Shown here: piece after piece, positions 2,718-17,389 of the stretch
Numbering within the stretch: the first letter of the stretch is position 1
Layout: each line of letters begins with the position of its first letter
Virus record (IMG/VR): IMGVR_UViG_3300034061_003371
Coordinates: 1-20,545 of that record
DNA length: 20,545 nucleotides
Strand: one strand, 5' to 3'
Origin: a virus
Translations under genes and position numbers: made by a program
The notes under the pieces: generated by a model
The model's input: the letters and a program-made list of their open reading frames with translations, nothing else
Databases searched by the model: none
What the model was told of the DNA's origin: nothing

Positions 2718-2723
2718 TGTCAA
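2718..2723 (-). promoter_or_regulatory. TTGACA motif, 20 nt before the start at 2697
   Basis: Exact TTGACA on the coding strand, followed by C, just after the RmlC-like gene's stop. This is the longest spacing of the seven copies. No TATAAT-like box lies 16-18 bases downstream. Confidence 0.45.
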
Positions 2724-2727
2724 AGTG

Positions 2728-3156
2728 TCAGCGCGACTCCACGGCCCACTTGAACGGGAAGGCTAACGGCCCTCTGCGCTCCTCGTCGGGATTGGCGGCA
2801 TCGTATTCACGGCTCGGTAAGTTCAGAATCGCCGCCTCGCGGTGGCCGTGGCAGGGCGTGAAACCGTGAAACAAACCTGCCGGGATGATGAGAAGCTGCT
2901 GCGTGTCGGCAGAAAGAATGATGGTCTGTCCGCGCATGGCCTTTGCGTCCCAAATGCCGACCTTTGCCGCGCCTGCTACGCAAAACCACCGATCCACTTG
3001 CAGCCTGTGGCGGTGCCACGCCTTCACCACGCCCGCCGAGCAGGTCGTGATGTAGGCTTGGCCGAAGCCGTGCGCGTCATCCGATGCGCGGAAGATTTCG
3101 GTGAGCTTGCCCCGCTCATCGAGGTGGGCCGTGAGCGGTCGCAGGGTGGCTAACAT
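2728..3156 (-). CDS. RmlC-like sugar 3,5-epimerase (cupin), short
   Basis: 142 residues from the ATG at 3156, chosen because AGGA sits nine bases upstream; an ATG at 3165 would add three residues and leave no room for that site. The opening RPLTAHLDERGKLTEIFR matches the start of dTDP-4-dehydrorhamnose 3,5-epimerase-type proteins. WHRHRLQVDRWFCVAG (about 47-62) is the cupin metal/sugar-site region, IPAGLFHGF (91-99) the second conserved block, and REYDAANPDEERR (116-128) the C-terminal signature. RmlC is usually about 180 residues, so this is a compact variant, perhaps a divergent epimerase or isomerase acting on a nucleotide-sugar. It overlaps the glycosyltransferase gene at 3150-4190, so the two are probably translated together. 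Confidence 0.75.
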   Translation of the reverse strand: MLATLRPLTAHLDERGKLTEIFRASDDAHGFGQAYITTCSAGVVKAWHRHRLQVDRWFCVAGAAKVGIWDAKAMRGQTIILSADTQQLLIIPAGLFHGFTPCHGHREAAILNLPSREYDAANPDEERRGPLAFPFKWAVESR

Positions 3157-4190
3157 GGCATCCATTCCTGTTGCCGCACCCGAAGGTGGCCGCGATATTC
3201 GCCTTCTGTCTCGTGGTAGGCTCGGTAATGGGTATATTCGGGTGCGTCTGCGGGTGCGTCCTTGCCCTTGCGCTTCACATGATCCGCCGCTGTGTGAGGG
3301 ATGCAGGCAATCCGAAGCCCTGCCGGGTGCCACCTGTGCCAACAAAGGAACAGGTCTTGTGTGCCCCTGCCGTCGTAGCCCTCAAAGGTTGCCAGCGCGA
3401 GCGCCTTGGCCGAAAGAAGCGTGCAGCCCAAGCCGCACCAATCGGACGGGACGATAGCCCCCCTGCCGATTCCGGGGAACGCGAAGTCCAGCCACCCGCG
3501 TCTGCGCCATCCATGCTTGGCCGTGACTTCAAAGACGTTGCCGTCTGGCGCGCATCGCTTTACCCGCTCGTGGAGTCGCCCCAACCTCTTGCCTTCGCGC
3601 TCGCCGATCTTCTGGTCTTTGCAGTCCTTCAACCGCTCGCGGCAAGCCTCCAAGGCGCGGACGAGGCGCGGCGGCAGTCGCCTTTCTTTCTCGGTGAAGT
3701 CTTCGGCAATCGGGTTCTGGGGCGTGCCATTGCCCCCAAGGAAAAGGCCATTCGGATAGGTCACAGCGGCAACATCGTAAAAGTTTGACCCATCCGCCTG
3801 CGGCATAGTCAGCGCCCACTCGGCCACCCGGAGCGCGTCTGCCGGGACAAGGTTGTCGGCCTCCACCGACCACAACATCGAGGCGCGGATCTTGCGGGCA
3901 GCGGCCAACGCGGCCCCCTGTAGGGCGGCAATCCGCATCTGTGCGGGCGCCTGGTAGTCCTTGCCCTCGGCTCCCCCGTCATCGAGCGGAAGCTGCACGG
4001 CTTGTATCCTCCACCCTTCGGGCAGTTCGTGGCGCGCTGCTTCGATGGCCTGCTTGGCCTCGTCCGACTGGTCGGTCGCCAGAATGAAATGCGCCTCGGC
4101 GTGGTGCCCGGCTGCGGCGGTGATGCGCCGAAGGAACTGGGGCCAGCAGTGGAAATAGCTCTTGGTTGCGTATGTCGCGATAGCCAGCAC
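3150..4190 (-). CDS. Glycosyltransferase-like protein (GT-A fold)
   Basis: 346 residues from a GTG start, the first possible start after an in-frame stop; TTGACA lies 16 bases upstream and there is no clear Shine-Dalgarno. The N-terminal pattern (MLAIATYATKSYFHCW, later HFILATDQSDEAKQ) is a nucleotide-binding Rossmann-like half. MLWSVEADNLVP (about 105-116) carries an E-x-D in the DxD position of GT-A enzymes. Near the C-terminus, GYDGRGTQDLFLCWHRWHPAGLRIACIP and ADHVKRKG (about 271-309) resemble the acceptor side and metal-binding His of family 2-type enzymes. A charged helical insertion lies at about 165-213. It sits directly between the Ser/Thr-rich fibre gene and the RmlC-like gene. The sugar and acceptor cannot be read from sequence. 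Confidence 0.7.
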   Translation of the reverse strand: MLAIATYATKSYFHCWPQFLRRITAAAGHHAEAHFILATDQSDEAKQAIEAARHELPEGWRIQAVQLPLDDGGAEGKDYQAPAQMRIAALQGAALAAARKIRASMLWSVEADNLVPADALRVAEWALTMPQADGSNFYDVAAVTYPNGLFLGGNGTPQNPIAEDFTEKERRLPPRLVRALEACRERLKDCKDQKIGEREGKRLGRLHERVKRCAPDGNVFEVTAKHGWRRRGWLDFAFPGIGRGAIVPSDWCGLGCTLLSAKALALATFEGYDGRGTQDLFLCWHRWHPAGLRIACIPHTAADHVKRKGKDAPADAPEYTHYRAYHETEGEYRGHLRVRQQEWMPC

Positions 4191-4206
4191 TCGCGGGCGG
4201 GCGGTG

Positions 4207-4212
4207 TGTCAA
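4207..4212 (-). promoter_or_regulatory. TTGACA motif, 16 nt before the GTG at 4190
   Basis: Exact TTGACA followed by C in the 25-base gap between the fibre gene stop and the glycosyltransferase GTG. The gap is otherwise C/G-rich with no Shine-Dalgarno. Here the motif does not coincide with a stop codon (the stop is six bases further upstream). Confidence 0.5.
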
Positions 4213-4215
4213 GCG

Positions 4216-5979
4216 TCAGTATTCCTCTGCATTCAAATAAATGGGCATTGCTGGCGGAAGGGGAGTCTCGTTGCGAAAAACCTCAAAGACGCAGGGAGCA
4301 AATGACGGCTCCAAGTAACTGATAGGAACCCAATATGTTGATTCTTTGGCTCCCGTCCACGTTGTGTCGTGGCCCTCAAACCATGAGGTGTCGCCATTTG
4401 CGTTTTTGAACAGCCCGCGCGGCATTTCAATCCGCGCAGTTTGGGCATTGCCCAAATTGCCGCCAATCAACCCCGCACGATACCCCAAAAAGCTGGCCCA
4501 CGTTGACCCGGAAACTCCAAAGCTAATGGATTTTGTCGTGCTTACCTCATCGGTGCCGCTTTGCGTTGTCGTCTGAAAGGTCGCGCTGTTTTGTGAAAAT
4601 GTTGCTGGGAAATCAACAATGGGCGCTACTGTTGTCAGACCAGCAAACCCTCCATCTATGGCTGTATTAAATATGAATTGTAAGCTGGCGAAGCTAAAGA
4701 ATCCTTCGCCAACAAAGAACAAACCTTTCGATTCATTTACTTTTACTCCGCGCGGACCATACCCGCTCATAATTGGCGGCCCAGCTATGCGCGGGAAGCC
4801 GTAGACAATCTGTTTGCTCACAGTTGTGTTGCCAGAGCAGCTTGTCGTTCCCGAATAGCTTCCGTTTATCAGAGTGTTGGCTGTGCGCGTAAGTGCCGTG
4901 TTGTTAACGGACACGGTGTTGACGGTCGTTGTTTGTATTTCTCCTAAGACAATCCAGCTATTGCCGCCGATAATATCACGTTTTGTTAATTCTGTGACTG
5001 TCCCGCTTGTTGCGGCGATTGTTTCTGTGTTCCCGTAATGCGTTATTGCAGGCTGGCCGCTTAATTGTAGCGTAATGTTACTGTTTGCGGTTCCTGCATA
5101 AACAACACGAGTCGTTCTGGTTGATCCATTGATCACTTGTGCATAACCGTTAATTGTGACCGTCGACCTAGAAAATGAGTTACGCTTGTGGGATTTGGAT
5201 ATTGTGCTTACAGAAGATTGAATTGTTTGTGCTGCTTGTGAAATTGTGAATATGTGCAAACTTGCTGTCTGCCTAAGATCAGAAACGGTTGTTCGTGTTG
5301 TCGAAATCGCATTGTCTGTAAGCGGTTTGCTCCACTGCGGAGCTTGGTTAACAACCCACAGAACTTCGTTTTCATCGGCTAAATAAATTGTGTCAGCAGC
5401 ATTGCCGACTGTTGTTCCATCTTCGGTGATGTTTGTTCTTGTTTTGGTTAAAGTTGTTCCTGATGTGTAAAAATAGGTGCCATTATTTTCTGTAGAAGCA
5501 AAAGTAAGCCGAGTTGCGCTTTCTTGACTTAGCTGCGTGGTGTCTGTTGTCCATCGTGAGCTTTCTCGGGTGCTGCTGGCCGTGATGCTTCCATAAACAG
5601 TAAATGCTTCGGTTGTTGATGTTTGTTTTGCAAAAGAATACAGAGTGGACCCACTAGAGCTTCCAGATGTCGTGCCCGTTAAAAAAAATGTGCCAAAAGT
5701 GTCTGACGTTGAAACAGTGATGGTTGTGGGCACCCCAAGCGCGCCCCCGGTGACGGCATAAGAAGAATAGTAATTGTATTCTTTGTATAGTGAGCTTGTG
5801 TAGCCAGTGGCGTTGTAGGTTTCTACGAAACTTGATATCTCGGTTGAACCAGATCCTTCTGCAAGGCTTATATCAGTGTTGGTTCCAGCATATTCAGATT
5901 GATACGATGTTAAGAACGACAAAATGCCTGAACAGCATTTTTCGAACGCAACCTCCCTTGCGGTAGTCCACGAAATCAT
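4216..5979 (-). CDS. Ser/Thr-rich tail fibre / probable receptor-binding protein
   Basis: 587 residues from the ATG at 5979, which overlaps the upstream stop as ATGA; an in-frame ATG further upstream lies in shadow sequence of the preceding gene. After a short helical start (MISWTTAREVAFEKCCSGILSF) the protein is dominated by Ser, Thr, Tyr and Asn in short alternating strands, with no membrane segments. The C-terminal 180 residues are more globular (FPRIAGPPIMSGYGPRGVKV, then an aromatic end before NAEEY). Place downstream of the tape measure and composition suggest a beta-rich fibre or tip protein contacting the host. The DNA is visibly AT-richer than the terminase-capsid region, hinting at separate acquisition. 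It is a natural candidate acceptor for the adjacent glycosyltransferase, which is inference. Confidence 0.6.
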   Translation of the reverse strand: MISWTTAREVAFEKCCSGILSFLTSYQSEYAGTNTDISLAEGSGSTEISSFVETYNATGYTSSLYKEYNYYSSYAVTGGALGVPTTITVSTSDTFGTFFLTGTTSGSSSGSTLYSFAKQTSTTEAFTVYGSITASSTRESSRWTTDTTQLSQESATRLTFASTENNGTYFYTSGTTLTKTRTNITEDGTTVGNAADTIYLADENEVLWVVNQAPQWSKPLTDNAISTTRTTVSDLRQTASLHIFTISQAAQTIQSSVSTISKSHKRNSFSRSTVTINGYAQVINGSTRTTRVVYAGTANSNITLQLSGQPAITHYGNTETIAATSGTVTELTKRDIIGGNSWIVLGEIQTTTVNTVSVNNTALTRTANTLINGSYSGTTSCSGNTTVSKQIVYGFPRIAGPPIMSGYGPRGVKVNESKGLFFVGEGFFSFASLQFIFNTAIDGGFAGLTTVAPIVDFPATFSQNSATFQTTTQSGTDEVSTTKSISFGVSGSTWASFLGYRAGLIGGNLGNAQTARIEMPRGLFKNANGDTSWFEGHDTTWTGAKESTYWVPISYLEPSFAPCVFEVFRNETPLPPAMPIYLNAEEY

Positions 5980-6605
5980 GGCCCGAGGACGTAGTAAATG
6001 TCGTATGGTGATTCGCCTGGGGAGGCCGCAGGATTGGCGCTGGTGACAAGCCAAGTGCGGATTGGCAGGCTGATATGGTCCGCCCCAATGACGCGATAAA
6101 CCTGCCCCTCGAAAAATAGGCCAAAGAGGTATTCGATTTCGGACTCAATGCCAAACTTTTGCGGCTGCTGAACGGTTGGTTCTGCTGTGTCGATTGCGAT
6201 TGTCACGCCTGTAATGGCTTCCCCATCCGTGGTGATGACGGCTTTGGCATAATGCAGGCCCGTTCCCGCGCACTCAAATTCCTCGTCCCAATTTGAAGGC
6301 AGAATGCCGTTGAGTGTTCCGGGTTGGACGCGCACGAGATAAGGCGGGCTCTCGTCTTCGGGGTCGGCATCGGGATCGACGCGGGCGATTAAGTCCCAAG
6401 GTTGGCGGGTGGTTGGGGCGGAGGTGCCGCCGCCCGGAGGAACCCGGATAGAAATGTGCGTTCCGTCCCCTGTGACGCGAGCAGAGAGGGGCGCGGCCAC
6501 TACCGGGCGGTTGCGCTTAATCTCAGAAAGAATGCGGTTGAGCTTGTCGGCTGTAATCTCCGACAAAAGCGGCCTGCCAGACTGAAATGGGCTAATGCCT
6601 TCCAT
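5976..6605 (-). CDS. Unknown tail-region protein
   Basis: 209 residues, ATG nine bases after the previous stop. The N-terminus is helical and basic (LLSEITADKLNRILSEIKRNRP), the kind of short assembly helix found in fibre-tip or adaptor proteins. A Gly/Pro linker (RVPPGGGTSAPTTRQP, about 54-69) follows, then a mixed beta domain (LIARVDPDADPEDESPPY, GLHYAKAVITTDG, EYLFGLFFEGQVYRVIGAD). It ends with the start codon of the Ser/Thr-rich fibre overlapping its stop (ATGA), so the two are translationally coupled and may assemble together. I recognise no family. Confidence 0.5.
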   Translation of the reverse strand: MEGISPFQSGRPLLSEITADKLNRILSEIKRNRPVVAAPLSARVTGDGTHISIRVPPGGGTSAPTTRQPWDLIARVDPDADPEDESPPYLVRVQPGTLNGILPSNWDEEFECAGTGLHYAKAVITTDGEAITGVTIAIDTAEPTVQQPQKFGIESEIEYLFGLFFEGQVYRVIGADHISLPIRTWLVTSANPAASPGESPYDIYYVLGP

Positions 6606-6614
6606 GATGGTGGC

Positions 6615-7310
6615 TTATGTGCCGTCGTAGATCACTTTTTCCGGGTCCCACCCGTTGCGGTCGGAGAGCATCCATTCTTTTGTCACCTCGTAGGCTACGG
6701 TTCCAGTGGGCCGGGCCACGCTGCGCGCATTGATTGAGGTCAAAAGCCAGTTTTGGGTGTTTCCAACCGCTGGCGTGCGGCTCGGTGCGTTGACCGTGCA
6801 AAGCTCTTTAAGGTTGGGCAGGGCCGTTTCCAGCGTGGTTTGGCGATAGGAAACCGCAGGGGCGAGGTAATATTCCTGGCCTCGCAGGAGCAGCTTGTAG
6901 AGGATGCGCGCCTTATTGTCTTCCTCTGTTGGAACAAGTGTGGTGTCGGGATCTGCGCCATTCTGAATAGCTGATTTGATTTCTTTTAGCGCCGCGTCGC
7001 TTACAGAATCCTTAAATGTGGGATGCGCCTCGGTCGGGATCTCCCGCGCTCCACCGATAAGCTCTGTGGTCGCTCCTCCTCCCGCGCTTCCGCCGCTTCC
7101 TCCCGCATCTTGGCCCTGCGTCCATGTGACTGTCACGCGAGTCGTTCCGCCCTCGCCCTGGGCAAAATCCGCAGAGGTGATCGTTGCTCCCTGCACGGCG
7201 GTCGGGTTGACCGACGTTTCGCCTGCGGTCAAAACATAGACCTGCTTGGTAAGTTTCTTGCCGTCTGGCGTATAGCTGATGCCGCCGCCTGTTGTAGTTA
7301 CTTGCGCCAT
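6615..7310 (-). CDS. Unknown tail-region protein with glycine-rich linker
   Basis: 231 residues, ATG three bases after the tape measure stop. The first 65 residues are a beta-type domain (VTTTGGGISYTPDGKKLTKQ, TRVTVTWTQG). A Gly/Ser/Ala linker (GGSGGSAGGGATT, about 70-82) joins it to a more helical C-terminal domain (DAALKEIKSAIQNGAD, KARILYKLLLRGQEYYLAP, ending TKEWMLSDRNGWDPEKVIYDG). A flexible glycine linker between two small domains suits a tail-tip or spike adaptor. No distal-tail or tail-associated lysozyme motifs are visible. Function is unknown; the call rests on position after the tape measure. Confidence 0.5.
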   Translation of the reverse strand: MAQVTTTGGGISYTPDGKKLTKQVYVLTAGETSVNPTAVQGATITSADFAQGEGGTTRVTVTWTQGQDAGGSGGSAGGGATTELIGGAREIPTEAHPTFKDSVSDAALKEIKSAIQNGADPDTTLVPTEEDNKARILYKLLLRGQEYYLAPAVSYRQTTLETALPNLKELCTVNAPSRTPAVGNTQNWLLTSINARSVARPTGTVAYEVTKEWMLSDRNGWDPEKVIYDGT

Positions 7311-7313
7311 AGG

Positions 7314-8699
7314 TTATCGAGAGTTGCTCAAAACGAGCGGTTCGCCTTTTTCCAAGGCTTTGAGAATGTTTTTTAGAAAATCGTTTGCTCGCCGCTGAAG
7401 CTCTTTGGGATCGTCGCCACGCACGCGGAAAAACTCGGTGGATGCACCGCCGATGCGTTGCAGGGCGGATGCGCCAAAGTCGCCGTTAAAAGCTGATTGC
7501 TGCGCTTGTTGCAGCGCAATCCGTAATGCCTCTTCCTGTTGCTCGCGGGCAAAATTGGCGGCATCTACGCGGAAGCCGCCCAAAGCCGCCTCTGCCGTGC
7601 CGGGGCCAAACTGTGGCCCTTGGCCGCGCGCTGCCGCCTCTTGCTGGCGGCGAAGTTCCTCAATGCCCTCAAAACTGCCCGGCCCAAGCTGTCGGCCAAT
7701 GACGTTTCCGCGACGAGTTCCAGACTCTAAAGCGGCTTGTTTTTCTTTTTCGCGCGTAATTTCTTTTTCGGATTGTAACCGTTCTTGAATCGCAGCCGCC
7801 TCGTTCTCCGCCGCAATTCTGGCCTCAAGTTTGGCTTTGGCTTCAGCAATAAACTCTGGCGAGGAGTTGTCACGAAGCTGATCGTCTAAGCGGCGGCGTT
7901 CTTCGCGTTGCTTTTGTTCGCGCTGTATGCGCGCGGTCGCAGACTGGTCGCCAGCCGATTCGGATAACTGTTCGGCGTCCAATCTTTGGCGCTCTAGCGA
8001 TGCCAGCAACGCTTGCTGCGCTTTTGATCTTTGGTCTTGTTCTTGTGAGCGCAATCCGCCAGTCACAAAATTAAGCCCAAGAAAATCAGCCCCACGATTT
8101 AACAGTTGTCCGGGCTTTGCAGAAAAGAAGTTTGCAAATGCGCTGCGCGTATCTTTGCCGATTGTTTCTTTGATGATTTTGCCAGTCTGATCGGCCAGGC
8201 TATTCAGTTGCTTGTAGCCAGATATGGCGGCATCCAATGTTGGCGCCGCCCCGGCCTCGCCAAGAACTTGATTAAATTGCTCTTGAACTGACGTAGCTGC
8301 TTTTACGGCCTCGCTTAACTGATCGAATGCGGATGCGATTACCTTTCCGACCGTAGCCGCAACGCCAATCATTATGGCAAATCGGCCAAGGACGCCGCCA
8401 ATTCCGTTGCTAAATTCTTGGGGGGGATTGGGGTCGAACGCCTGCTGCGCGGCCTCACGCGCCTGTTTAAGCTGTTGCTGCAACTCCCGCAGCGGCCCGA
8501 GGCCATAGTCACCGATGTCTATATCTATCGGCCCGCCGCTGCCGCCCGGCTGTTTTACTTGCGGCATTCTTGGCGCGGTGGATGCCCGCGCAAAAGTCTG
8601 CTGCACTTGTGTCGCCGTCTTTTGTGCATCGGCCAAGACGGACTGAAAACCAGTTTGCGTCTGGTTGGCCGCTGTGATTTTTACTTTTACTTCAGCCAT
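7314..8699 (-). CDS. Tape measure protein (short)
   Basis: 461 residues from MAEVKVKITAANQ; the ATG overlaps the chaperone stop by eight bases and has a strong AAGGAGG nine bases upstream. Residues of about 20-110 are Gln/Pro-rich with helices. A hydrophobic segment at about 115-150 (GVLGRFAIMIGVAATVGKVI) is the membrane-active stretch expected in tape measures. Residues of about 230-345 are a long Gln/Glu/Arg coiled coil (RQRLDAEQLSE, KQREERRRLDDQL, KEITREKEKQAALESG). At about 1.5 angstrom per residue the tail would be near 70 nm, short for a siphovirus. The neighbouring tail chaperone supports the call. No peptidase or lysozyme domain is seen. Confidence 0.75.
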   Translation of the reverse strand: MAEVKVKITAANQTQTGFQSVLADAQKTATQVQQTFARASTAPRMPQVKQPGGSGGPIDIDIGDYGLGPLRELQQQLKQAREAAQQAFDPNPPQEFSNGIGGVLGRFAIMIGVAATVGKVIASAFDQLSEAVKAATSVQEQFNQVLGEAGAAPTLDAAISGYKQLNSLADQTGKIIKETIGKDTRSAFANFFSAKPGQLLNRGADFLGLNFVTGGLRSQEQDQRSKAQQALLASLERQRLDAEQLSESAGDQSATARIQREQKQREERRRLDDQLRDNSSPEFIAEAKAKLEARIAAENEAAAIQERLQSEKEITREKEKQAALESGTRRGNVIGRQLGPGSFEGIEELRRQQEAAARGQGPQFGPGTAEAALGGFRVDAANFAREQQEEALRIALQQAQQSAFNGDFGASALQRIGGASTEFFRVRGDDPKELQRRANDFLKNILKALEKGEPLVLSNSR

Positions 8700-9255: not shown

Positions 9256-9266
9256 AGCGCGAGCCC

Positions 9267-9827
9267 TTACGATCCGGCAAAAGCGACCGTGGTGACGGTG
9301 ACGCGCTGGTAATCGGTGTTACCAAACCGCTTTTCAACTCGGATGGTGGAGGTAGAAGAATGGTCGCCTGTGGTGAGCGTTGATCCGCCGACTGCCGCCG
9401 TGTTGATGGCCGTGCCACGAATGTTTGACTTGACCACATCGCCCGACGTTTCGGCCTTTTCGGCGCTCAGAACTGTAAAGCTAATGCTATCGAGCGTGAA
9501 GCTGCTGCCTGTGAAGTCGCCCAAAACCTGCGCCGAAGCCTCGGCGCGGGGGTTGTAGAATCGGATGGCCGGGGGCGCAGTGTTGGCGCTGCCGCTTTCA
9601 ATCAGTTGCTCGTCCACTTGGGCGGTGATGGTGGCGTTGAGAACCTCGTAGCTGCCAATCGTGCCAGCGCCGAAGGTGGTTCCGACCGTCTCGGTGGTTG
9701 TCTCCGTGCGGACATACTTCGAGATGATCGTCGTGGTGACGCCGTTCTGGTCTTGAACCAGAAGTTTCTCAAACGTCTTGGCCGTGCTTTTGGAAAAAGC
9801 GCCCGAAACACCGTAGCTGATAGGCAT
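9267..9827 (-). CDS. Putative major tail (tube) protein
   Basis: 186 residues, ATG with GAGGG just upstream and a TTGACA copy 14 bases upstream. The sequence is Ser/Thr/Val-rich with alternating strands (VTTTIISKYVRTETTTETVG, YEVLNATITAQVDEQLIESG, FTLDSISFTVLSAEKAETSG, RVTVTTVAF), with no membrane segment, signal or catalytic motif. It lies between the tail terminator and the tail chaperone, where the major tail tube gene sits in lambda-like phages. Size and beta content agree. I cannot match a specific tube family, so a minor tail protein remains possible. Confidence 0.5.
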   Translation of the reverse strand: MPISYGVSGAFSKSTAKTFEKLLVQDQNGVTTTIISKYVRTETTTETVGTTFGAGTIGSYEVLNATITAQVDEQLIESGSANTAPPAIRFYNPRAEASAQVLGDFTGSSFTLDSISFTVLSAEKAETSGDVVKSNIRGTAINTAAVGGSTLTTGDHSSTSTIRVEKRFGNTDYQRVTVTTVAFAGS

Positions 9828-9841
9828 ACCCTCGCTGGGCG

Positions 9842-9847
9842 TGTCAA
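9842..9847 (-). promoter_or_regulatory. TTGACA motif, 14 nt before the start at 9827
   Basis: Exact TTGACA followed by C. It contains the TGA stop of the upstream tail terminator gene. A GAGGG ribosome site follows, so here the two signals coexist. Confidence 0.5.
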
Positions 9848-10725: not shown

Positions 10726-11621
10726 GCGGCTTGGGCTAACTTGCCGAGGCGGTTGTTCATTTCGCGCTCGATCTGTTTCTGGCGAAACTCAAGCAACCAA
10801 TTAACCCGGCCTTGGCGGATTTTGTCGCTGGCGTTTTTTGCGGTGTTCGCCATTTCGATATACATATTCAGCGGATTGCCGAAGCTCCTGCGGCCTTTTC
10901 CGCTGCCTCGCGTAAGGTTGTTGCTGACAAATTCTGGCAAATTGAGCGCGCCTGCCCCCACAAGTCCGAGGTCTTTCCATGCAGCGCCCCAGCCCGCCTT
11001 GAGCGTTCCAACGCGCTTGGTCATTTTGGTCGTGTAGCTGTTCATTTTGCCTTTGCTAACGACAAGCTGCGACCAATGCGCTTGGTTCACTCGGCCCTGA
11101 GAATTTTGCCTGCTCTTGTGCAGATTGCGGTTCGGTTCTTGGCCCACATATTGAAGATTGCCCAACTTTGGCTCGCCCACTGCCGACACTTTCCGCGTCT
11201 GTGTGTAGCTGTTGACGCGCTTTCCTTTTTTCGTGGTATAGGGGCGCACCTCAACCAGCGTCGGGGTCTGATTGTTCAGAAGATCCAAGGCGCGGGCCTC
11301 TGAGTAATTTGGGCCACCCTGTTTCATGTATCGGTTAAACGCGGCAGACACCCCACGCACTCCGCTATCGGCCAAGATTTTGCGAATGACGGCAACAGTG
11401 ACAAAAACTCGGTTGATGTCTCGTGTGACCGCGCCAACGCCCTCCGCTTGGTCTTTGGGTGGAGTAATGGCAAGCAAGCCATTGTCGCCACTATCACGCA
11501 CAAGCAGTCTTGCTTGGCGGATAAGTTCTTGCCCGACTTCTTTTGTTGTCGCATTGACAAACTTCGGGACGAACTTACGCAATTCATCCAGCGTAATGTC
11601 GGCTGAGACTGCCGCCGCCAT
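10722..11621 (-). CDS. Neck/tail-completion protein, unknown family
   Basis: 299 residues from MAAAVSADITLDELRKFVPK, ATG two bases after the connector stop; an in-frame upstream extension is arginine-rich shadow sequence. The N-terminus is helical (ELRKFVPKFVNATTKEVGQELIRQARLL), as in HK97 gp10/lambda gpZ-type neck proteins. A strongly basic middle follows (RPYTTKKGKRVNSYTQTRK, about 158-176), then Asn/Lys/Arg-rich sequence and a Gly/Arg stretch (NLTRGSGKGRRSFG) before a long C-terminal helix (NWLLEFRQKQIEREMNNRL). Position between connector and tail terminator fits a neck protein. It is larger and more basic than the usual 120-190 residues, so it may touch DNA or carry extra domains. Confidence 0.5.
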   Translation of the reverse strand: MAAAVSADITLDELRKFVPKFVNATTKEVGQELIRQARLLVRDSGDNGLLAITPPKDQAEGVGAVTRDINRVFVTVAVIRKILADSGVRGVSAAFNRYMKQGGPNYSEARALDLLNNQTPTLVEVRPYTTKKGKRVNSYTQTRKVSAVGEPKLGNLQYVGQEPNRNLHKSRQNSQGRVNQAHWSQLVVSKGKMNSYTTKMTKRVGTLKAGWGAAWKDLGLVGAGALNLPEFVSNNLTRGSGKGRRSFGNPLNMYIEMANTAKNASDKIRQGRVNWLLEFRQKQIEREMNNRLGKLAQAA

Positions 11622-11623
11622 AA

Positions 11624-11956
11624 CTATTCGGCCAAGCCGCCCGCTGTGATTTCGACCACTGCGCCGTCCTGCGAGACGGCCAACACTTGAAGCTCTTGCC
11701 CGCGAACCGTCACACGGCTCCAAATGGCGGGAACGGCGTTGTCGATCTTGTCGAAGCGCGGCTCAAAGGCGCTGGCTTGGAGCGCCAGGCGCACGCTGCG
11801 GATCTGACGCACCCCGCCCTCGGCCAATTCATCGCGGGTTTCAGTGTCGCCAACCACAGCCTTGTAGTCGATCCCGCCAATAGTCACACACTCGCCGCCG
11901 ACATCGGTAATCGCGGCCACGCCAAGGATGTGCGCGGTATCTAACTGGCTTGCCAT
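11624..11956 (-). CDS. Head-tail connector/stopper-like protein
   Basis: 110 residues, ATG three bases after the glycosyltransferase stop. It is a small, acidic, beta-rich protein: GECVTIGGIDYKAVVGDTET, VRQIRSVRLALQ, SRVTVRGQELQVLAVSQDG, VVEITAGG. This layout of a short beta-barrel with a conserved turn (V-R-G-Q-E-L-Q-V) fits the FII/stopper class that closes the head after packaging. The call rests on size, fold pattern and position before the neck gene. A TTGACT near-match to the recurring upstream motif sits 14 bases before the ATG. Confidence 0.45.
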   Translation of the reverse strand: MASQLDTAHILGVAAITDVGGECVTIGGIDYKAVVGDTETRDELAEGGVRQIRSVRLALQASAFEPRFDKIDNAVPAIWSRVTVRGQELQVLAVSQDGAVVEITAGGLAE

Positions 11957-11959
11957 GCC

Positions 11960-13711
11960 CTAATCCTTGGAGTCAAAGGCGTCAGGGTTGCGGCGCTTGA
12001 AGACCTCGGCCCCGAATTTGTTGGCCGCGTCGGAGTTCTCCACATCGTAGATGGCATCTGTGGCAACCTTGGGATCGAAAAACGGGTGGTTATGCAGAAA
12101 CACAATCTCGCTGTCCAAGACGATCCCTGCTTTGCGCGTGCGGTGGGAAAATTCCGTGTCGGAATAAATGCCGTGATAGTCGCCAGACAGGATTCCTCCA
12201 CCGTTGCCAAGCCAGCCGAGGGTTGGCCGGGTGCAAACGAACGTCACCATGAGGCCGTCCGTGCGATGGCCGTCTTTCACGCCAAGCACTTTTGGGCGCT
12301 TTAGGTGCGGTTCCAACGCCTGCCAAACAAGCTCGTCCCAAAATAGCGGCGGCTCGATGTCATCTTGTGCAGTGACGATGATTTGCCCTGACGATGCTTT
12401 TACTGCCGCGTTGTAATTCGCCACGGCATTTCCACCGACTTGATCCATGAGGCCAGCGGGCGAAAGGCCGTGCTTGAATCGACCCAAAACGTCTCGCGTC
12501 TCGGCATCATCCTCGGCAAAACCAAAGATGTATTCCACGCTTTGCGGGTCTTTGGCCGCTTCCAGCCACTTCTTGCGCGTCTCGGCAGCTTGAAGCGGGC
12601 GGCCACGGGTCGGGTGGCAAACGCTTATCTTGGCCCCGCACTTCTTGAACCACTCCAATTCAAACTGATCTGCCCGCTCGGTGTCGCCATTGGCACGCAA
12701 GGTGCAAGCGTAAAGCCCGACGCCGCCGAATCCATAGACCACCGGGCGGTGCGTCCACGGGACAATCTCTGGCACAGGCAGGGCCATAAATGCGCGGGCA
12801 TAGGCCAAGGCGTCTTGCGCCTCGCCGTTGTCCAGGCTGGTGGCCGCGAGTTGGGCCAAGGCTTCCCTGCGCCACGGGCTGACTTTGTATGCCTCATGCA
12901 ATAGCGATTTCTTCGGCGCAAATGCCTGCGTCCGCATGGCGAGTTGCAGATATAGCTCATAGCGTTCGTCACCTGAGAGCGATTCGTGTTTCAGTGCCTC
13001 GATGGCGAGTTCCATGCCGCGCGCATCTTCTTTCATGCCGAAATGCTCAAGGCTCCCGTAGAAAATCCAGCGCGGGTCTTTGTCCCAATCGGGCTGCGAA
13101 GCGATGATGCGCCAGTTGCGGGCATTGCCGCGCTTTTCGGATGCCTCGTCTTTCTTTTCGTCGGGGGCGTGGACAATGCGGGCGTCCTCCCACCTCACTT
13201 GCCCGTCTCCCGATTTGTCTAAGGGTTCAAGGTGTTCGTGAACAGCGCCGTCCCACTTGGCCGTCCCGCGCCGCCAGATGCGCTCACGCAAGAGGTTCAG
13301 TCCATTATTGGTCAAGCGATAGGGAACCATCGCCAGCGTGGTCGTGGGGGCCGTCTCGCGCAAATGCTGGCGGATAATGTCGCAGGACTCTTGCTCAATA
13401 ATATCGTCCGTATCGGCCCAAACCAGCCAATCGTGGCCGTCTGCCTCGGCCATGTCCGTCGCCATCTGCCGGGCGGCGGCGAAGTTGTCCACATGATCCC
13501 AAAACTGGAACGCTTCGGCGTTCTTGTATTCGCCAACCTTGCACCCCATTTCGCGGGCAATGTCCAGCGAACGATCTGGCTCCCTGCCGCCGCAGGCGCG
13601 GACAATGTAGATGTGGGGCGTGAGCTTTTGGAAAGCCTCGATGAATCGCCCGATGTAACCCTCGCTATTTCCAGTAATAGCGACCAACGCCAAGGAAGGC
13701 AGTGTGTCCAT
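11960..13711 (-). CDS. Large bifunctional glycosyltransferase (GT2 + helical repeat + second GT-A domain)
   Basis: 583 residues, ATG start. The N-terminal GT2 domain opens with LALVAITGNSEGYIGRFIEA, the metal/nucleotide-sugar motif is WADTDD (98-103), and WDGAVHEHL (153-161) is the conserved acceptor-side block of family 2 enzymes that carry a TPR tail. Residues of about 215-315 are TPR-like helices (GMELAIEALKHE, YELYLQLAMR, ALAQLAATSLDNGEAQDAL). A second GT-A-like domain starts at about 361 (KISVCHPTRGRP), with TAQDDIEPP (448-455) as a second DxD-type site and a GILSGDYHGIYSDTEF acceptor region. It sits between the capsid gene, behind a terminator, and the connector genes. Protein or capsid glycosylation is plausible; host surface sugar modification is the alternative. 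Confidence 0.8.
   Translation of the reverse strand: MDTLPSLALVAITGNSEGYIGRFIEAFQKLTPHIYIVRACGGREPDRSLDIAREMGCKVGEYKNAEAFQFWDHVDNFAAARQMATDMAEADGHDWLVWADTDDIIEQESCDIIRQHLRETAPTTTLAMVPYRLTNNGLNLLRERIWRRGTAKWDGAVHEHLEPLDKSGDGQVRWEDARIVHAPDEKKDEASEKRGNARNWRIIASQPDWDKDPRWIFYGSLEHFGMKEDARGMELAIEALKHESLSGDERYELYLQLAMRTQAFAPKKSLLHEAYKVSPWRREALAQLAATSLDNGEAQDALAYARAFMALPVPEIVPWTHRPVVYGFGGVGLYACTLRANGDTERADQFELEWFKKCGAKISVCHPTRGRPLQAAETRKKWLEAAKDPQSVEYIFGFAEDDAETRDVLGRFKHGLSPAGLMDQVGGNAVANYNAAVKASSGQIIVTAQDDIEPPLFWDELVWQALEPHLKRPKVLGVKDGHRTDGLMVTFVCTRPTLGWLGNGGGILSGDYHGIYSDTEFSHRTRKAGIVLDSEIVFLHNHPFFDPKVATDAIYDVENSDAANKFGAEVFKRRNPDAFDSKD
11971..11976 (-). promoter_or_regulatory. TTGACT, near-match to the recurring motif, 14 nt before the start at 11956
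   Basis: One mismatch from TTGACA, with the same 14-base spacing as three exact copies. It lies inside the last codons of the glycosyltransferase gene, so the match may be chance. AAGGAT between motif and start could act as ribosome site. Confidence 0.3.
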
Positions 13712-13727
13712 GCGGCCACGGCGGGCC

Positions 13728-13733
13728 TGTCAA
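13728..13733 (-). promoter_or_regulatory. TTGACA motif, 16 nt before the start at 13711
   Basis: Exact TTGACA followed by G, located after the capsid terminator and before the glycosyltransferase ATG. Here it is intergenic and independent of any stop codon. A -35 role would need a -10 element around the start codon, and none is seen. Confidence 0.5.
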
Positions 13734-13740
13734 CTTCACC

Positions 13741-13770
13741 AAAAGCAAAACCCCCGGCTATGCCGGGGGT
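13741..13770 (-). terminator. Intrinsic terminator after the capsid gene
   Basis: On the minus strand, ACCCCCGGC pairs with GCCGGGGGT over a three-base loop (ATA): a 9-bp perfect, very GC-rich stem at 13750-13770. It is followed by TTTTGCTTTT (13741-13750). It starts 29 bases after the capsid stop. It should end most transcription after the capsid gene and lower expression of the glycosyltransferase and tail genes unless antitermination or a new promoter acts. Confidence 0.9.
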
Positions 13771-13798
13771 CTGCTGAACACACGAACCAGAACAGTCT

Positions 13799-14713
13799 TT
13801 AGGCTTTCTTGGCGAGGATTTTAAGACCCGCCGTGATGCCGTAGGTGAATCCGCCCACCACCTCAAAATTGAGGAAATGAGTCCCATTTGCTGTGTTATA
13901 GTGACGGCGATAGCCCAAACCAATACCAGAGACGGGATCGACCACGGTGCGAGCTTCCAGATACTCTGAAGGAGCCTGCGGCTGGAGGGTGCGGATCGCC
14001 ACGGCGATGGCCGAGGGATGCACCGCGAAGCCTGCGAGGGTGATGCTGGTTCCGACGTTGGTGGCCGGGATCAGGGTGGACTCGTAGACGTTCATGCCCG
14101 CCAGACGGCGAACCACTCCCTCGCGCACACCTTCGGGGCCGAAGTTGAGGTTAGCAAGGATGTTCGTGCTGTCGGAGAGGAGAGCGTCGTAGGCTTCCGG
14201 CTCCAAGAACAACGCGCGGTCGTTCTGCGGGGCTTTGGCCTTGGTGAGTTCCAAGCGGGCCTTGCGGACATCGGCCATCGAGAACGAGGCCGAGGTGAAC
14301 GAGGCAACCGCCGTGCCGAAGTTACCCGTGGTGATCATGCCCCACGCTGCGCTGATGAAAGCCTGCGCCACTGCGCGGCCCTGCTCTGCGCCGATTTCGG
14401 CAAGCATCTGCGGGGTGAGCGCGGAGGACTTGCTCCATTGGGTGTCGGTGAAATCGACCGTGCTGAGATAGTGCTTGTCGATCGTGACCTCACGGGCGGT
14501 GAGGGTAACGTCTCCGTCCGCACCTTCGTAGGTGTTGTTGAACGTGGAGGCGGTGATCGAGGAGATGAGCGGGATGCTCACCACTTCGCCTTTGCGCGCG
14601 GCTTCGGCGTTGTAGTTCACGCTGAAAGCGTTCAGCGGATGGAGGGAATCAACGAACGCCTTGAGCGCCGCTGAAGAGATGATGTCGTCGTTAAGACCAG
14701 TGATGGAGGCCAT
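13799..14713 (-). CDS. Major capsid protein
   Basis: 304 residues, ATG nine bases after the scaffold stop. It opens with a short helix (LNDDIISSAALKAFVDSLHP). EVVSIPLISSITASTFN and VTLTAREVTIDKHYLSTVDFTDTQWSKS match the pattern of the HK97-fold N-arm/E-loop region. A Ser/Ala-rich helix (EQGRAVAQAFISAAWGMI) and RLAGMNVYESTLIP follow, then strands typical of the A and P domains (GFAVHPSAIAVAIR, EARTVVDPVSGIGLGYRRHY). The usual HK97-fold range is about 280-400 residues. The place after protease-scaffold and before a strong terminator is classic for the most highly made virion protein. The specific capsid family was not identified. Confidence 0.85.
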   Translation of the reverse strand: MASITGLNDDIISSAALKAFVDSLHPLNAFSVNYNAEAARKGEVVSIPLISSITASTFNNTYEGADGDVTLTAREVTIDKHYLSTVDFTDTQWSKSSALTPQMLAEIGAEQGRAVAQAFISAAWGMITTGNFGTAVASFTSASFSMADVRKARLELTKAKAPQNDRALFLEPEAYDALLSDSTNILANLNFGPEGVREGVVRRLAGMNVYESTLIPATNVGTSITLAGFAVHPSAIAVAIRTLQPQAPSEYLEARTVVDPVSGIGLGYRRHYNTANGTHFLNFEVVGGFTYGITAGLKILAKKA

Positions 14714-14722
14714 GTTAGTAGG

Positions 14723-15097
14723 TTATTTGGATTGTTTGAGCTTGTTGATGAGGGAGAAATCGCTGGCCTCAAGCGCCTTGCGGACGATTTCAAATTTTGT
14801 GGCGCGGTCGCCAGAAGCGTAAGCGTCTTCGACCGAAACGGCGGAACCGTTGCCCGTGATGGCGTTGTCGCCGCGAGCGGCGAGTTCGACTTCCAGAGCG
14901 GACAGCTTGGTCATCGCGGCATCGAGCTTCGCGGCCATTTCCGAATCAACGGGGGCGGCGACGGGCGCGGGGGTTTCTTCTTTGGCGGCGGCGAGGCCGT
15001 CCACGGTGGATTTGAGGTCGGCAACCGAAGCGGCCAACGATTCGATGGCGGCTTGAGCGTCGAACTCAACTTTAGCGACAGAACTATTTTCAGTCAT
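14723..15097 (-). CDS. Probable nested scaffold protein from an internal in-frame start
   Basis: The ATG at 15097 in the frame of the protease-scaffold gene would give a 124-residue product beginning MTENSSVAKVEF, just after the protease domain ends. TTGACA lies exactly 14 bases upstream, the same spacing as at two gene starts. Lambda makes scaffold Nu3 from a start inside protease gene C, so nested expression is an established arrangement. The product would be the coiled-coil scaffold without protease. Confidence 0.55.
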   Translation of the reverse strand: MTENSSVAKVEFDAQAAIESLAASVADLKSTVDGLAAAKEETPAPVAAPVDSEMAAKLDAAMTKLSALEVELAARGDNAITGNGSAVSVEDAYASGDRATKFEIVRKALEASDFSLINKLKQSK

Positions 15098-15562
15098 GCC
15101 CACTGCGGCGGTGTCAACTTCGGGCGCGGCTTCGGGCTCAGACCCGGCGCGGAAAACGCCGTCAGGGTTGGCGGCGGGGCGGGAAACCAGATCCACGCTG
15201 ACCAGTTCCGAGACGCGGGCAAAACGCTTTCCGTCTTGCTCGTCGGGCGTTCCGCTGAAGGTCATGGAAAAACCGACACGGTTTGGCGCTTTGGTCAGGA
15301 TCTCGCTGTAGAAAGTGGCCTGCGGGTGCGAGCCGAGAAGTTCCAAGTCAGCGCGAAGTTGGTCTTCGACAATGCGGAAGTTGGCGAGGAAGCCGATGAG
15401 GGAATCAATGCTTTCGTCGTGATCGACAAAGACTTTGACGGGCGAACCAGCAACGCCTGCGGCCTCGGCCTGCAACAGCGTCACATCGTCCACCATCATG
15501 GCGTGGCCGAGCGCAGGGCCAACCGTGGCGACAGATATTCCTTCAAATTTGAGGGCGTCCAT
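14723..15562 (-). CDS. Prohead protease fused to scaffold
   Basis: 279 residues, ATG 17 bases after the portal stop; TTGACA lies 15 bases upstream. Residues 1-137 resemble the S78-type prohead protease: VDHDES (46-51, His48), VGFSMTFSG (96-104, Ser99) and RVSELVSVDLVSRPAANPDGVF (Glu119) give the His/Ser/Glu set in the right order. Residues of about 140-279 are Ala/Glu-rich, with a predicted coiled coil (AAIESLAASVADLKSTVDGL, KLDAAMTKLSALEVELAARG) and a C-terminal helix ending KLKQSK, as expected of an internal scaffold. The protease would cut the scaffold during capsid maturation. A second, internal start probably yields free scaffold (separate entry). Confidence 0.8.
   Translation of the reverse strand: MDALKFEGISVATVGPALGHAMMVDDVTLLQAEAAGVAGSPVKVFVDHDESIDSLIGFLANFRIVEDQLRADLELLGSHPQATFYSEILTKAPNRVGFSMTFSGTPDEQDGKRFARVSELVSVDLVSRPAANPDGVFRAGSEPEAAPEVDTAAVGMTENSSVAKVEFDAQAAIESLAASVADLKSTVDGLAAAKEETPAPVAAPVDSEMAAKLDAAMTKLSALEVELAARGDNAITGNGSAVSVEDAYASGDRATKFEIVRKALEASDFSLINKLKQSK
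15112..15117 (-). promoter_or_regulatory. TTGACA motif inside the protease-scaffold gene, 14 nt before the internal ATG at 15097
   Basis: Exact TTGACA followed by C within coding sequence. Because it has the same 14-base spacing as copies before 9827 and 17369, it supports a functional internal start. Confidence 0.5.
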
Positions 15563-15577
15563 ACTCGGACGCGCTCA

Positions 15578-15583
15578 TGTCAA
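15578..15583 (-). promoter_or_regulatory. TTGACA motif, 15 nt before the start at 15562
   Basis: Exact TTGACA followed by T. Its TGA is the portal stop codon. No Shine-Dalgarno is seen between it and the ATG. Confidence 0.5.
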
Positions 15584-17109
15584 GCAGTCGCCTTCTTGCG
15601 ACGGTAGATGCGTTTGCGCTTCTTGGGCAAAGCCAACTCTGTCGGTTCTTCTTTGCTTTCCAACTGCGGGGCGCTGTCCGCTGGCGCATCGAGCGCAGGG
15701 ATAACTTCCACCACGGCAGCTTGCGGCTGCGCCTGCTCCACCCCAATCATCACGCCAAGATCGGCGGCAAATTCGCGTTCGGTCGCAATCTCGGCCACGG
15801 CCTCCTTCCAATCAATGCCCTGCTCGCCGAAGTAATCGGAGAGAGTCATTAGCCCGGCCTTTACATCGTCGCGGCGGGCGGCGGCCTCGCGGCCTACGTC
15901 CACCGTGATCGAGCGCGGGGTTTGCCAGCCGACAGACTGCCAGCCGGGATTCATGGGAAGTTCTTTGCGCGAGATGGCGCGGGCAATCGCATAGCGCCAC
16001 AGCTTCGATAGGAACGCATTAACCAGCACATCCTGGCGGGCAGCAAAGCATCTCGCCGCCTTCTGAATGATAAACCTTTGCGCCACGCCGCCGATCGCGC
16101 TGGTGTCCCAAACAAACTCGTAAGGCAGGCCAAGGCCGATGGCCGCTGCGCGAATGTATTGCTCAAGGTGTTTGTCGAGCTTCTCGTTCGGGCGGTTCAT
16201 CACGAAGGATTGAATGTCCTCCGTATTCTTCATGCGCGGAACCAGCCCGCCGCCGAAAATGCTTTCGCGGGTCAGGTTGCCGTTGCTGTCCTTGCTGAAG
16301 TCGCCAAGGAATCCTTCCGCGCCAATGTTCCCCGTGGAGTTTTTAATAACGAGGCCGATGCTGCTGCCAGCCTTTGCCGCCATCATTTCAAAGCGCAGCA
16401 ATTCGTCCCGATCCAAAACGCTGTTGAGCGCCACACCGATGGCAGGATAACCGCGCACTTGGTCGGCGCGCTCTGGTTCGTAAACATGAAGCATCGCGTC
16501 GGCCTTCACCTCGCGGTGGCGGCGCGGGTATTCGTCGCCCTCCCCGATAAAATAGCCAAGCGGGCGCTGGAATTTGTCGAGCTTCACGCCGTCCACCACC
16601 CCGCTGTTGCTTGCCGAGGTGTCGGGCGACTCCACGCGGTGCGCCTCGACAATCTGCACGGCAGGAGCGCCGTCTGTCTTGGCCGTGAGGATGGCAAAAA
16701 TTTCCCCGTCCCGGTCAATGGCCTCCGACACGAGCATTTGCAGGGAGCGCATATCGTGCCGCCCGCTGATTTCGGGCGAGCGCGCCCAATTCTCCCACCA
16801 TTGCTCTGCCGCATCGTCCCACGCTTGATCACCTGACATGGCTTGCGGGCGAATGCCGATGCCGCTGCCCACGGAATACATGGCCTTGTCGCGCACTGCG
16901 CCCCGCACTATCGCGTTGTTGTAGAAACATTTACGCGAAAGCGCCATCAGGCGGGTGCGGTCATAGGAGGAAAGGTCAACCTTGGAATCCTGCGCCTGCG
17001 CGTAAACCCAACCGCGCTCCTCGCTGCGGTGGTTCACGGCCTCGATCATGCGCGAGAACCCGAAAGCTGCGGCCACGCGGTCAACAAATTTGGTCTGCTT
17101 GGTCTTCAT
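15580..17109 (-). CDS. Portal protein (lambda gpB-type)
   Basis: 509 residues from MKTKQTKFVDRVAAAFGFSR, ATG overlapping the gpW-like stop as ATGA; an earlier in-frame Met lies in shadow sequence of the neighbour. Features of the lambda portal family: SSYDRTRLMALSRKCFYNNAIVRGAVR near the N-terminus; WENWARSPEISGRHDMRSLQMLVSEAIDRDGEIFA (stem and wing); VQIVEAHRVESPD; MLHVYEPERADQVRGYPAI; and YIRAAAIGLGLPYEFVWDTS in the C-terminal half. The lysine/arginine-rich C-terminus (PKKRKRIYRRKKATA) is notable and may touch DNA or scaffold. The portal forms the dodecameric DNA-entry ring at one capsid vertex. Length fits the family (about 500-530). Confidence 0.9.
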   Translation of the reverse strand: MKTKQTKFVDRVAAAFGFSRMIEAVNHRSEERGWVYAQAQDSKVDLSSYDRTRLMALSRKCFYNNAIVRGAVRDKAMYSVGSGIGIRPQAMSGDQAWDDAAEQWWENWARSPEISGRHDMRSLQMLVSEAIDRDGEIFAILTAKTDGAPAVQIVEAHRVESPDTSASNSGVVDGVKLDKFQRPLGYFIGEGDEYPRRHREVKADAMLHVYEPERADQVRGYPAIGVALNSVLDRDELLRFEMMAAKAGSSIGLVIKNSTGNIGAEGFLGDFSKDSNGNLTRESIFGGGLVPRMKNTEDIQSFVMNRPNEKLDKHLEQYIRAAAIGLGLPYEFVWDTSAIGGVAQRFIIQKAARCFAARQDVLVNAFLSKLWRYAIARAISRKELPMNPGWQSVGWQTPRSITVDVGREAAARRDDVKAGLMTLSDYFGEQGIDWKEAVAEIATEREFAADLGVMIGVEQAQPQAAVVEVIPALDAPADSAPQLESKEEPTELALPKKRKRIYRRKKATA

Positions 17110-17369
17110 GTGCGGTTCGGGAAGCGCATCTGCGTTACGCGGCTGTTGCCGATTGTCCCGGCATTGATGGCAAGGGCCGTCTCGATGAGGCCAAGCATAT
17201 CCCAAGCGTCATAGGATTTTTGCAGGGTGACGCTGCGACCGCCGACGCTGCTTGACACGACGAACGCCTGACTCGCCCCGCCAGCAAGGATCTGAGCCTT
17301 ACAACTGGCTTTGAGTTGCGAAAGTTCAGAGGCCGTAAAAACTTGGGCCAGAATAGCAGCGTCCGTCAC
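17106..17369 (-). CDS. gpW-like head-tail joining protein (position-based)
   Basis: 87 residues from a GTG at 17369, the first sensible start after the upstream stop; TTGACA lies 14 bases upstream and an upstream in-frame extension is arginine/proline-rich shadow sequence. It begins VTDAAILAQVFTASELSQLK, then KAQILAGGASQAFVVSSSVG, SVTLQKSYDAWDMLGLIETA. This is the helix - beta hairpin - helix layout of lambda gpW-type proteins (68 residues), which bind beneath the portal. The place between terminase and portal, with an ATGA overlap to the portal, is that of gpW in lambda. The sequence match is loose, so the call is moderate. Confidence 0.55.
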   Translation of the reverse strand: MTDAAILAQVFTASELSQLKASCKAQILAGGASQAFVVSSSVGGRSVTLQKSYDAWDMLGLIETALAINAGTIGNSRVTQMRFPNRT

Positions 17370-17383
17370 GCACTCGCGGCGTG

Positions 17384-17389
17384 TGTCAA
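17384..17389 (-). promoter_or_regulatory. TTGACA motif, 14 nt before the GTG at 17369
   Basis: Exact TTGACA followed by C. Its TGA is the stop codon of the upstream small gene. There is no convincing Shine-Dalgarno between motif and GTG. Confidence 0.5.

What the first reader, a model, noticed from the sequence alone, without database searches (positions are those of the whole stretch)
2718..17389. Recurrent TTGACA at fixed distance before start codons
On the coding strand, TTGACA occurs at 17389-17384, 15583-15578, 15117-15112, 13733-13728, 9847-9842, 4212-4207 and 2723-2718. The starts follow at 14, 15, 14, 16, 14, 16 and 20 bases. Scanning by eye I saw no exact copy elsewhere on that strand. 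Five of seven continue as TTGACAC. In some the TGA is the upstream stop codon, but at 13728, 4207, 2718 and 15112 it is not, so stop codon use does not explain it. Most of these starts lack a Shine-Dalgarno. It equals the sigma-70 -35 consensus, yet the -10 would fall on the start codon and is absent. It could be a novel initiation element, an unusual promoter for leaderless messages, or an RNA-processing or protein-binding site.
Basis: partly seen in the sequence, partly recalled or inferred. Interest (0 to 1): 0.8.

Follow-up and report, generated by a model that had tools for sequence, protein, structure and literature searches.

The report
Phage gene-start tag TTGACA
A group of viruses of little-studied bacteria places the same six-letter sequence a fixed short distance before many of their gene starts, probably to attract ribosomes, while the host bacteria sampled hardly use it.

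Summary
The window is the structural-gene module of a tailed phage. All 7 coding-strand TTGACA lie 14-20 nt before starts; an eighth site (TTGACT) lies 14 nt before 11956. The count is ordinary (9; shuffles 9.07); the placement is not.

Dozens of related uncultured phages and several Verrucomicrobiota prophages share TTGAC[A/T] 13-17 nt before starts: 52 gene families, no -10 box. The hexamer is kept in 123 of 124 aligned homologous rows. In close relatives it marks genes after 12-45 nt gaps (44 of 79), rarely overlapping or abutting genes (6 of 204) or operon heads (10 of 96). It also marks an in-frame start nested in the gene between portal and capsid (35 versions, one in another reading frame). 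Sampled genes of one host lack it (0 of 258), and its 16S rRNA has no complementary hexamer.

Best explanation: an RNA-level, phage-specific translation-initiation element just upstream of the Shine-Dalgarno position. A sigma-70 promoter is disfavoured, but cultured phage P8625 has TTGACA at promoter-like distance (30 nt). Nearest known kind: start-associated sequences of Cluster K mycobacteriophages.

The parts
17384..17389 (-). TTGACA, 14 nt before the GTG at 17369 (gene 17106-17369, right after the terminase region and before portal); its TGA is the stop of the gene before
   Evidence: hexamer exact in 9 of 10 aligned rows
15578..15583 (-). TTGACA, 15 nt before the ATG at 15562; its TGA is the portal stop
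   Evidence: 28 of 28 rows
15112..15117 (-). TTGACA inside the 14723-15562 gene, 14 nt before a nested in-frame ATG at 15097
   Evidence: 26 of 26 rows; 35 distinct nested versions in relatives
14723..15097 (-). nested in-frame ORF of 124 aa, probable scaffold (role inferred from its place between portal and major head protein)
   Evidence: portal and head protein by PHROGs
13728..13733 (-). TTGACA, 16 nt before the ATG at 13711 (glycosyltransferase-like gene), just after a terminator-like hairpin
   Evidence: 21 of 21 rows
11971..11976 (-). TTGACT, 14 nt before the ATG at 11956; lies in the 3' end of the gene before
   Evidence: 22 of 22 rows
9842..9847 (-). TTGACA, 14 nt before the ATG at 9827; its TGA is the stop of the gene before
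   Evidence: 16 of 16 rows
4207..4212 (-). TTGACA, 16 nt before the GTG at 4190
   Evidence: only one aligned row, though one search shows more
2718..2723 (-). TTGACA, 20 nt before the ATG at 2697 (the outlier in spacing)
   Evidence: no aligned rows; four group A sites have 20 nt spacing

Best explanation
TTGAC[A/T] is a phage-borne, start-associated translation-initiation element. It acts in the mRNA at about -22 to -15 from the start codon, just upstream of the Shine-Dalgarno position, and recruits or positions the ribosome at starts that cannot be served by coupling to the gene before. Shown: position, strand, tight 13-17 nt spacing, invariance, presence across diverse phages and prophages, absence from sampled host genes. 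Inferred: that it is read as RNA, that the ribosome or a ribosome-bound factor reads it, and that it raises translation.
For: Distance is fixed to the start codon (18 of 19 at 14-16 nt; group A 14:20, 15:12, 16:11, others 3). 55 gene families, 52 after dropping three doubtful ones, share only this block. Hexamer exact in 123 of 124 rows while the 12 upstream bases are 0.59-0.92 identical at the six well-covered sites. Group A: 44 of 79 genes after a 12-45 nt gap, 6 of 204 at gaps of 11 nt or less or overlapping, 7 of 78 after longer gaps, 3 of 18 divergent (Fisher 2e-23 and 9e-11). Nested in-frame start with the element in 35 distinct versions: the Val codon is GTT in all 27 group A rows although GTT is 21% of Val codons, and in L247 the hexamer is read in another frame as Leu-Thr. 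12 virus records: 91 matches of TTGACAN{13,16}RTG against 11 of the reversed control. Prophages of G087 (7 of the genome's 21 matches in the last 39 kb) and G137 (10 of 51 within 41 kb on one strand) stand out from their hosts. Host genes: TTGACA 0 of 258, 0 of 83, 0 of 73; TTGACT 0, 1, 0. In group A 7 of 53 element genes have an SD-like word.
Against: No experiment. In group B most element genes also have an SD-like word (6 of 7), so it is not simply a substitute. Part of the gap effect is room: overlapping genes can carry the element only inside coding sequence. In the G407 prophage it follows long gaps more often (>45 nt 4 of 10; 12-45 nt 1 of 7). The hexamer equals the -35 consensus, and P8625 has it at 30 nt, not 12-18 (4 and 0 of 52 genes). 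It is not specially unpaired in folded mRNA (0.48 against 0.49). No complement in the G087 16S region, and no reader protein found.
Confidence: 0.6

Rival explanations
1. An RNA-processing site or RNA-protein binding site near starts: a nuclease, repressor or stabilising protein of phage or host binds UUGACW in the leader and sets late-gene expression, without the ribosome itself being guided by it.
For: UUGAC is invariant, as a protein site might be, and has no partner hexamer in the G087 16S region.
Against: The spacing to the start codon is tight and the nested start carries it, which a cleavage or stability site does not need.
Confidence: 0.17
2. A promoter element: TTGACA as -35, or part of a promoter for a phage-specific polymerase or sigma factor, making leaderless or short-leader messages.
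For: Identity with the sigma-70 -35 consensus. P8625 has four TTGACA exactly 30 nt before annotated starts, and group C has TTGACT-N17-TACACT 29-32 nt before a gene on the other strand. One site follows a terminator-like hairpin. In-gene depletion against synonymous shuffles is equal for both strands, as for a DNA site, but vanishes under a Markov-4 model.
Against: No -10 at the 13-17 nt sites: 6 of 52 with four or more matches, control 6.2%. Commoner inside operons than at operon heads in group A (44 of 79 against 10 of 96). A -10 would fall on the start codon.
Confidence: 0.13
3. A directional DNA element read by the transcribing polymerase, like the ops pause site of RfaH, that couples polymerase to ribosome at SD-poor starts.
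For: Strand-specific, tied to starts, in SD-poor genes; such coupling is known from RfaH (recalled).
Against: The RfaH ops sequence is different (recalled); no pause evidence; I looked for no NusG-like phage protein beyond the 126 scanned.
Confidence: 0.07
4. Chance or by-product of TTGA stop-codon use before closely packed genes.
For: The total count equals shuffles, and at three of eight window sites the TGA is the upstream stop.
Against: Invariance, recurrence in 52 gene families and in distant phages, and sites without any stop, including the nested start.
Confidence: 0.02

Closest known systems
Start Associated Sequences (SAS) of Cluster K mycobacteriophages (PMC3203893) and similar motifs of Cluster EF Microbacterium phages (PMC7302621); passages seen
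   Same: Short, non-palindromic, unusually conserved, repeated before many start codons of different gene families, essentially one orientation, absent or rare in the host genome, thought to act in translation, function unproven
   Different: SAS is a 13-mer holding AGGAG, 3-7 nt from the start, near non-structural genes mostly after gaps over 50 bp, and partly pairs with 16S rRNA. Here: a 6-mer without SD or 16S complement, 13-17 nt away, at structural genes after 12-45 nt gaps
Sigma-70 promoter -35 box
   Same: Same hexamer
   Different: No -10 at the right spacing; tied to start codons inside operons
Shine-Dalgarno sequence
   Same: Fixed distance before start codons; apparent role in start selection
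   Different: No complement to the 16S tail; lies upstream of the SD position; in group B found together with SD-like words
Nested scaffold start as in lambda C/Nu3 (recalled)
   Same: In-frame internal start giving the C-terminal part, between portal and capsid genes
   Different: Here the internal start carries the TTGACA element; the scaffold role is inferred only from position

Membership tests
Start Associated Sequence (Cluster K type) | Repeated just before start codons of unrelated gene families, one orientation | tested here: met
   52 families; strand bias in 12 virus records
Start Associated Sequence (Cluster K type) | 13 bp GGGATAGGAGCCC-like sequence with SD core, 3-7 nt from the start | tested here: not met
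   Consensus TTGAC[A/T] only, 13-17 nt away; SAS text
Start Associated Sequence (Cluster K type) | Rare in the host | tested here: met
   0 of 258 sampled G087 host genes; 21 start-spaced matches in the whole genome, 7 in the prophage; the window's own host is unknown
Start Associated Sequence (Cluster K type) | Confined to non-structural genes | tested here: not met
   Most window sites are in the structural module
Sigma-70 promoter | -35 hexamer | tested here: met
   TTGACA
Sigma-70 promoter | -10 hexamer at 15-19 nt spacer | tested here: not met
   6 of 52 families with four or more matches; in-gene control 6.2%
Sigma-70 promoter | Transcription start downstream | not testable with these tools
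   needs 5'-end mapping
Shine-Dalgarno or other rRNA pairing | Complement in 16S rRNA | tested here: not met
   No TGTCAA in the 1721 nt taken at the G087 16S 3' end and upstream; GTCAA once, away from the 3' end; tail is CCTCCTTTCT
Shine-Dalgarno or other rRNA pairing | Same test in the window phage's own host | not testable with these tools
   host unknown

The most novel reading that the evidence does not exclude
A dedicated translation-takeover code: phages of Shine-Dalgarno-poor Verrucomicrobiota mark their late messages with a UUGACW box that a specific host or phage factor reads on the ribosome, so that phage starts are chosen over host starts.
Probability: 0.3. Interest if true: 0.85.

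Novelty: new variant of a known kind. Interest (0 to 1): 0.65.

Why it matters
How ribosomes find starts in bacteria that scarcely use Shine-Dalgarno sequences is open. A short, strictly conserved phage signal at a fixed distance, nearly absent from sampled host genes, gives a direct handle: it can be mutated in a reporter and its reader fished out. It would also improve gene-start calling in these viruses and expose nested genes such as the probable scaffold.

Tried and rejected
Rejected: a host-wide element in Verrucomicrobiota. TTGACAN{14,16}ATG exceeded its reversed control in many of 145 genomes, but in the two strongest, sampled in part, the copies were not at gene starts: G088 uses AAGGAG and has 5 TTGACA upstream of 258 genes against 4.4 expected; G141 2 of 67 against 1.2. 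G240 has a high background over the whole genome (115 matches, control 44) and says little.

Rejected: avoidance inside genes as evidence. TTGACA is rarer than in synonymous shuffles (A 28 against 61, B 6 against 25, C 9 against 23), but so is its reverse complement, and a Markov-4 model shows no deficit.

Led nowhere: a protein shared by the element-bearing phages. Among 14 contigs or prophages the most widely shared were large terminase and portal (13 each) and a 183 aa protein near the terminase (12). Pfam on 126 of 223 listed proteins from five of them gave no ribosomal protein or translation factor in the 25 of 43 families shown; smaller scans gave none. Rfam on seven stretches gave none. 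Openness of the hexamer in folded mRNA was like shuffles. Host of group A: the closest prophages among 387 Verrucomicrobiota genomes and 62 of the G087 order are 37-40% identical in terminase. The one named MAG contig of group C is labelled Betaproteobacteria and may be misbinned.

Hairpins in long spacers: of 24 sites with spacing 18-42 outside genes, 5 had a spacer fold reached by at most 6.5% of shuffles (three in P8625, leaving 5, 11 and 11 nt; one in group B leaving 14; one in the G427 prophage leaving 18); 19 did not. Suggestive at most.

Counting choices: one search left out L080 and L081 (near-identical to the window). Searches dropped three GTG sites of L272 as doubtful (55 families to 52). 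One search used de-duplicated loci. needs a blast alignment over the site, which favours conserved rows. My gene caller is simple; contigs were called in pieces, so genes at the cuts are lost, and the window's 4216-5979 gene and the terminase start were miscalled. The records were chosen among relatives already found.
Full report
WHAT THE WINDOW IS. A 20.5 kb virus record whose called genes all lie on the minus strand: large terminase, portal, a gene in the protease position, major head protein, a glycosyltransferase, and genes in the tail region without family matches. By terminase the top-ranked match among annotated phages is Akkermansia phage Moulinsart, 32% over 71% of the query. The host is unknown; Verrucomicrobiota is inferred from prophages.

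OBSERVATION. All stated coordinates and distances are right. The count of TTGACA is what shuffles give. What is special is that every coding-strand copy sits before a start, that an eighth site, TTGACT, does too, and that the same holds in other phages.

CONSERVATION AND SPREAD. Seven of the eight window sites gave aligned rows: 123 of 124 distinct rows keep the exact hexamer, the one departure being a gap; at the six sites with ten or more rows the 12 bases upstream are 0.59-0.92 identical. Group A (close relatives, 17 de-duplicated loci): TTGACA is the most enriched hexamer upstream of starts, 35 of 279 genes against 2.3 expected. Group B (terminase 42-51%): also first, 11 of 112 against 0.6. 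Group C (the L048 family): 11 of 171 against 1.2, tenth by score, and several of these are coding words about 30 nt from the called start. Groups D, E and F, more distant, gave 1 of 34, 2 of 20 and 0 of 24. In whole genomes the element marks prophages. G087 has 21 matches of TTGACAN{13,16}RTG in 3.76 Mb, 7 in the last 39 kb, of which 5 are distinct. G137 has 51 of TTGACAN{13,16}ATG (control 21), 10 of them on one strand within 41 kb around its terminase. Of 24 terminase neighbourhoods fetched have TTGAC[AT] 13-17 nt before an ORF, some ORFs perhaps spurious. Element-free: Moulinsart and the fetched stretches of the G033, G001 and G345 prophages; the G401 prophage has none and shows GGAGG-like words before several starts.

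ANATOMY. Over 52 families the only strong block is TTGAC[A/T]; in GC-rich phages G or T tends to precede it and C or T to follow. Nothing else stands out within 60 nt upstream, and downstream only the start codon does. There is no -10. In GC-rich phages GGGC often precedes the ATG (seen by eye).

WHICH GENES. Group A: 44 of 79 genes after a 12-45 nt gap, 6 of 204 at 11 nt or less or overlapping, 7 of 78 after longer gaps, 3 of 18 divergent, 0 of 9 at ends. Group B: 8 of 31, 0 of 57, 0 of 36, 0 of 8. Group C: 7 of 22, 1 of 42, 3 of 37, 0 of 2. G087 prophage: 5 of 12, 0 of 14, 0 of 18, 1 of 22. The G407 prophage differs (1 of 7, 0 of 8, 4 of 10, 1 of 6) and the G427 prophage shows no trend (1 of 7, 1 of 12, 1 of 10, 0 of 10) (all). 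Part of this is room, but the element also occurs within coding sequence where a start needs it: TTGACT at 11976, and the nested start at 15097. Of 35 distinct nested sites, 27 are group A, 7 group B and 1 group C. In the 27 group A rows valine is always GTT, which is 21% of valine codons; in six of the group B rows the hexamer spans Leu-Asp; in L247 it is read in another frame as Leu-Thr. So selection is on the nucleotides.

TRANSLATION OR TRANSCRIPTION. For translation: distance fixed to the start codon, the nested start, dependence on the gap in groups A-C and G087, scarcity at operon heads in group A, few SD-like words at element genes of group A (7 of 53) although SD-like words are somewhat commoner than control over all group A genes (33% against 19%), and a place just upstream of SD-like words in group B (6 of 7). 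The last point means that the element can be added to an SD rather than replace it. For transcription: the -35 identity and P8625. That cultured phage of Puniceicoccales, with starts annotated by others, has no element at 12-18 nt (0 of 52 genes), but 4 of its 14 plus-strand TTGACA lie exactly 30 nt before annotated starts, two overlapping the upstream stop as in the window. Three of the four have an inverted repeat in the spacer. Either a hairpin shortens the path or these are leaderless promoters with weak -10 boxes; I cannot decide. Group C has a clear promoter-like TTGACT-N17-TACACT 29-32 nt before a gene on the other strand, so the same hexamer probably serves in both ways.

READER. The G087 16S tail is ordinary and its region has no TGTCAA. 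Sampled host genes lack TTGACA (0 of 258, 0 of 83, 0 of 73; TTGACT 1 of 83 in G407). Host SD use is weak in G087 (29% against 28% control), more visible in G407 (20 against 12) and G427 (25 against 8). No translation-related family was seen in the proteins scanned. A host factor or an unrecognised phage protein are both possible.

PRIOR WORK. SAS of Cluster K phages and the similar motifs of Cluster EF (passages) are the closest kind and also of unknown function. [quoted passage not shown] Searches: TTGACA with Verrucomicrobia, phage and start codon, 0 papers; TTGACA with four related terms, 7 papers, titles and abstract starts only; Verrucomicrobi, prophage and Shine-Dalgarno, 3 papers, likewise. 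None of the titles or abstract starts reports this element. Subscription papers and preprints were not searched.

VERDICT. A real, phage-specific, start-associated element, most likely for translation initiation (0.6); its reader is unknown.

Noticed in passing
window 14723-15097, minus strand: Nested in-frame ORF with its own TTGACA inside the gene between portal and major head protein; probable scaffold, conserved in groups A, B and C.
   Followed up: yes
window about 13740-13770: A terminator-like GC-rich hairpin with a T-rich tail (minus strand) lies between the head-protein gene and the TTGACA at 13733; group B has similar hairpin-then-TTGACA arrangements.
   Followed up: no
L327 (phage P8625) 5412, 10736, 15558, 22406: TTGACA exactly 30 nt before four annotated starts, three with an inverted repeat of GTATCC...GGATAC type in the spacer.
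   Followed up: partly
L164, L165, L169, L172, minus strand: Promoter-like TTGACT-N17-TACACT 6-9 nt before a start codon: candidate leaderless message.
   Followed up: no
G087 contig C1, 3724572-3762597 (L127, L128): Two element sites recur identically about 34.86 kb apart at the end of the contig, as if the prophage were partly repeated or the assembly ran past a circular end.
   Followed up: no
L142 and L049 (prophage of an Opitutaceae MAG): No TTGACA box; CTAACC/TAACCC words are over-represented upstream of starts (5 of 24 genes against 0.3 in L142), perhaps another start-associated word.
   Followed up: no
window 11960-13711: A 583 aa glycosyltransferase-like gene sits inside the head operon right after the head-protein gene and clusters with proteins of groups A, B and C.
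   Followed up: no
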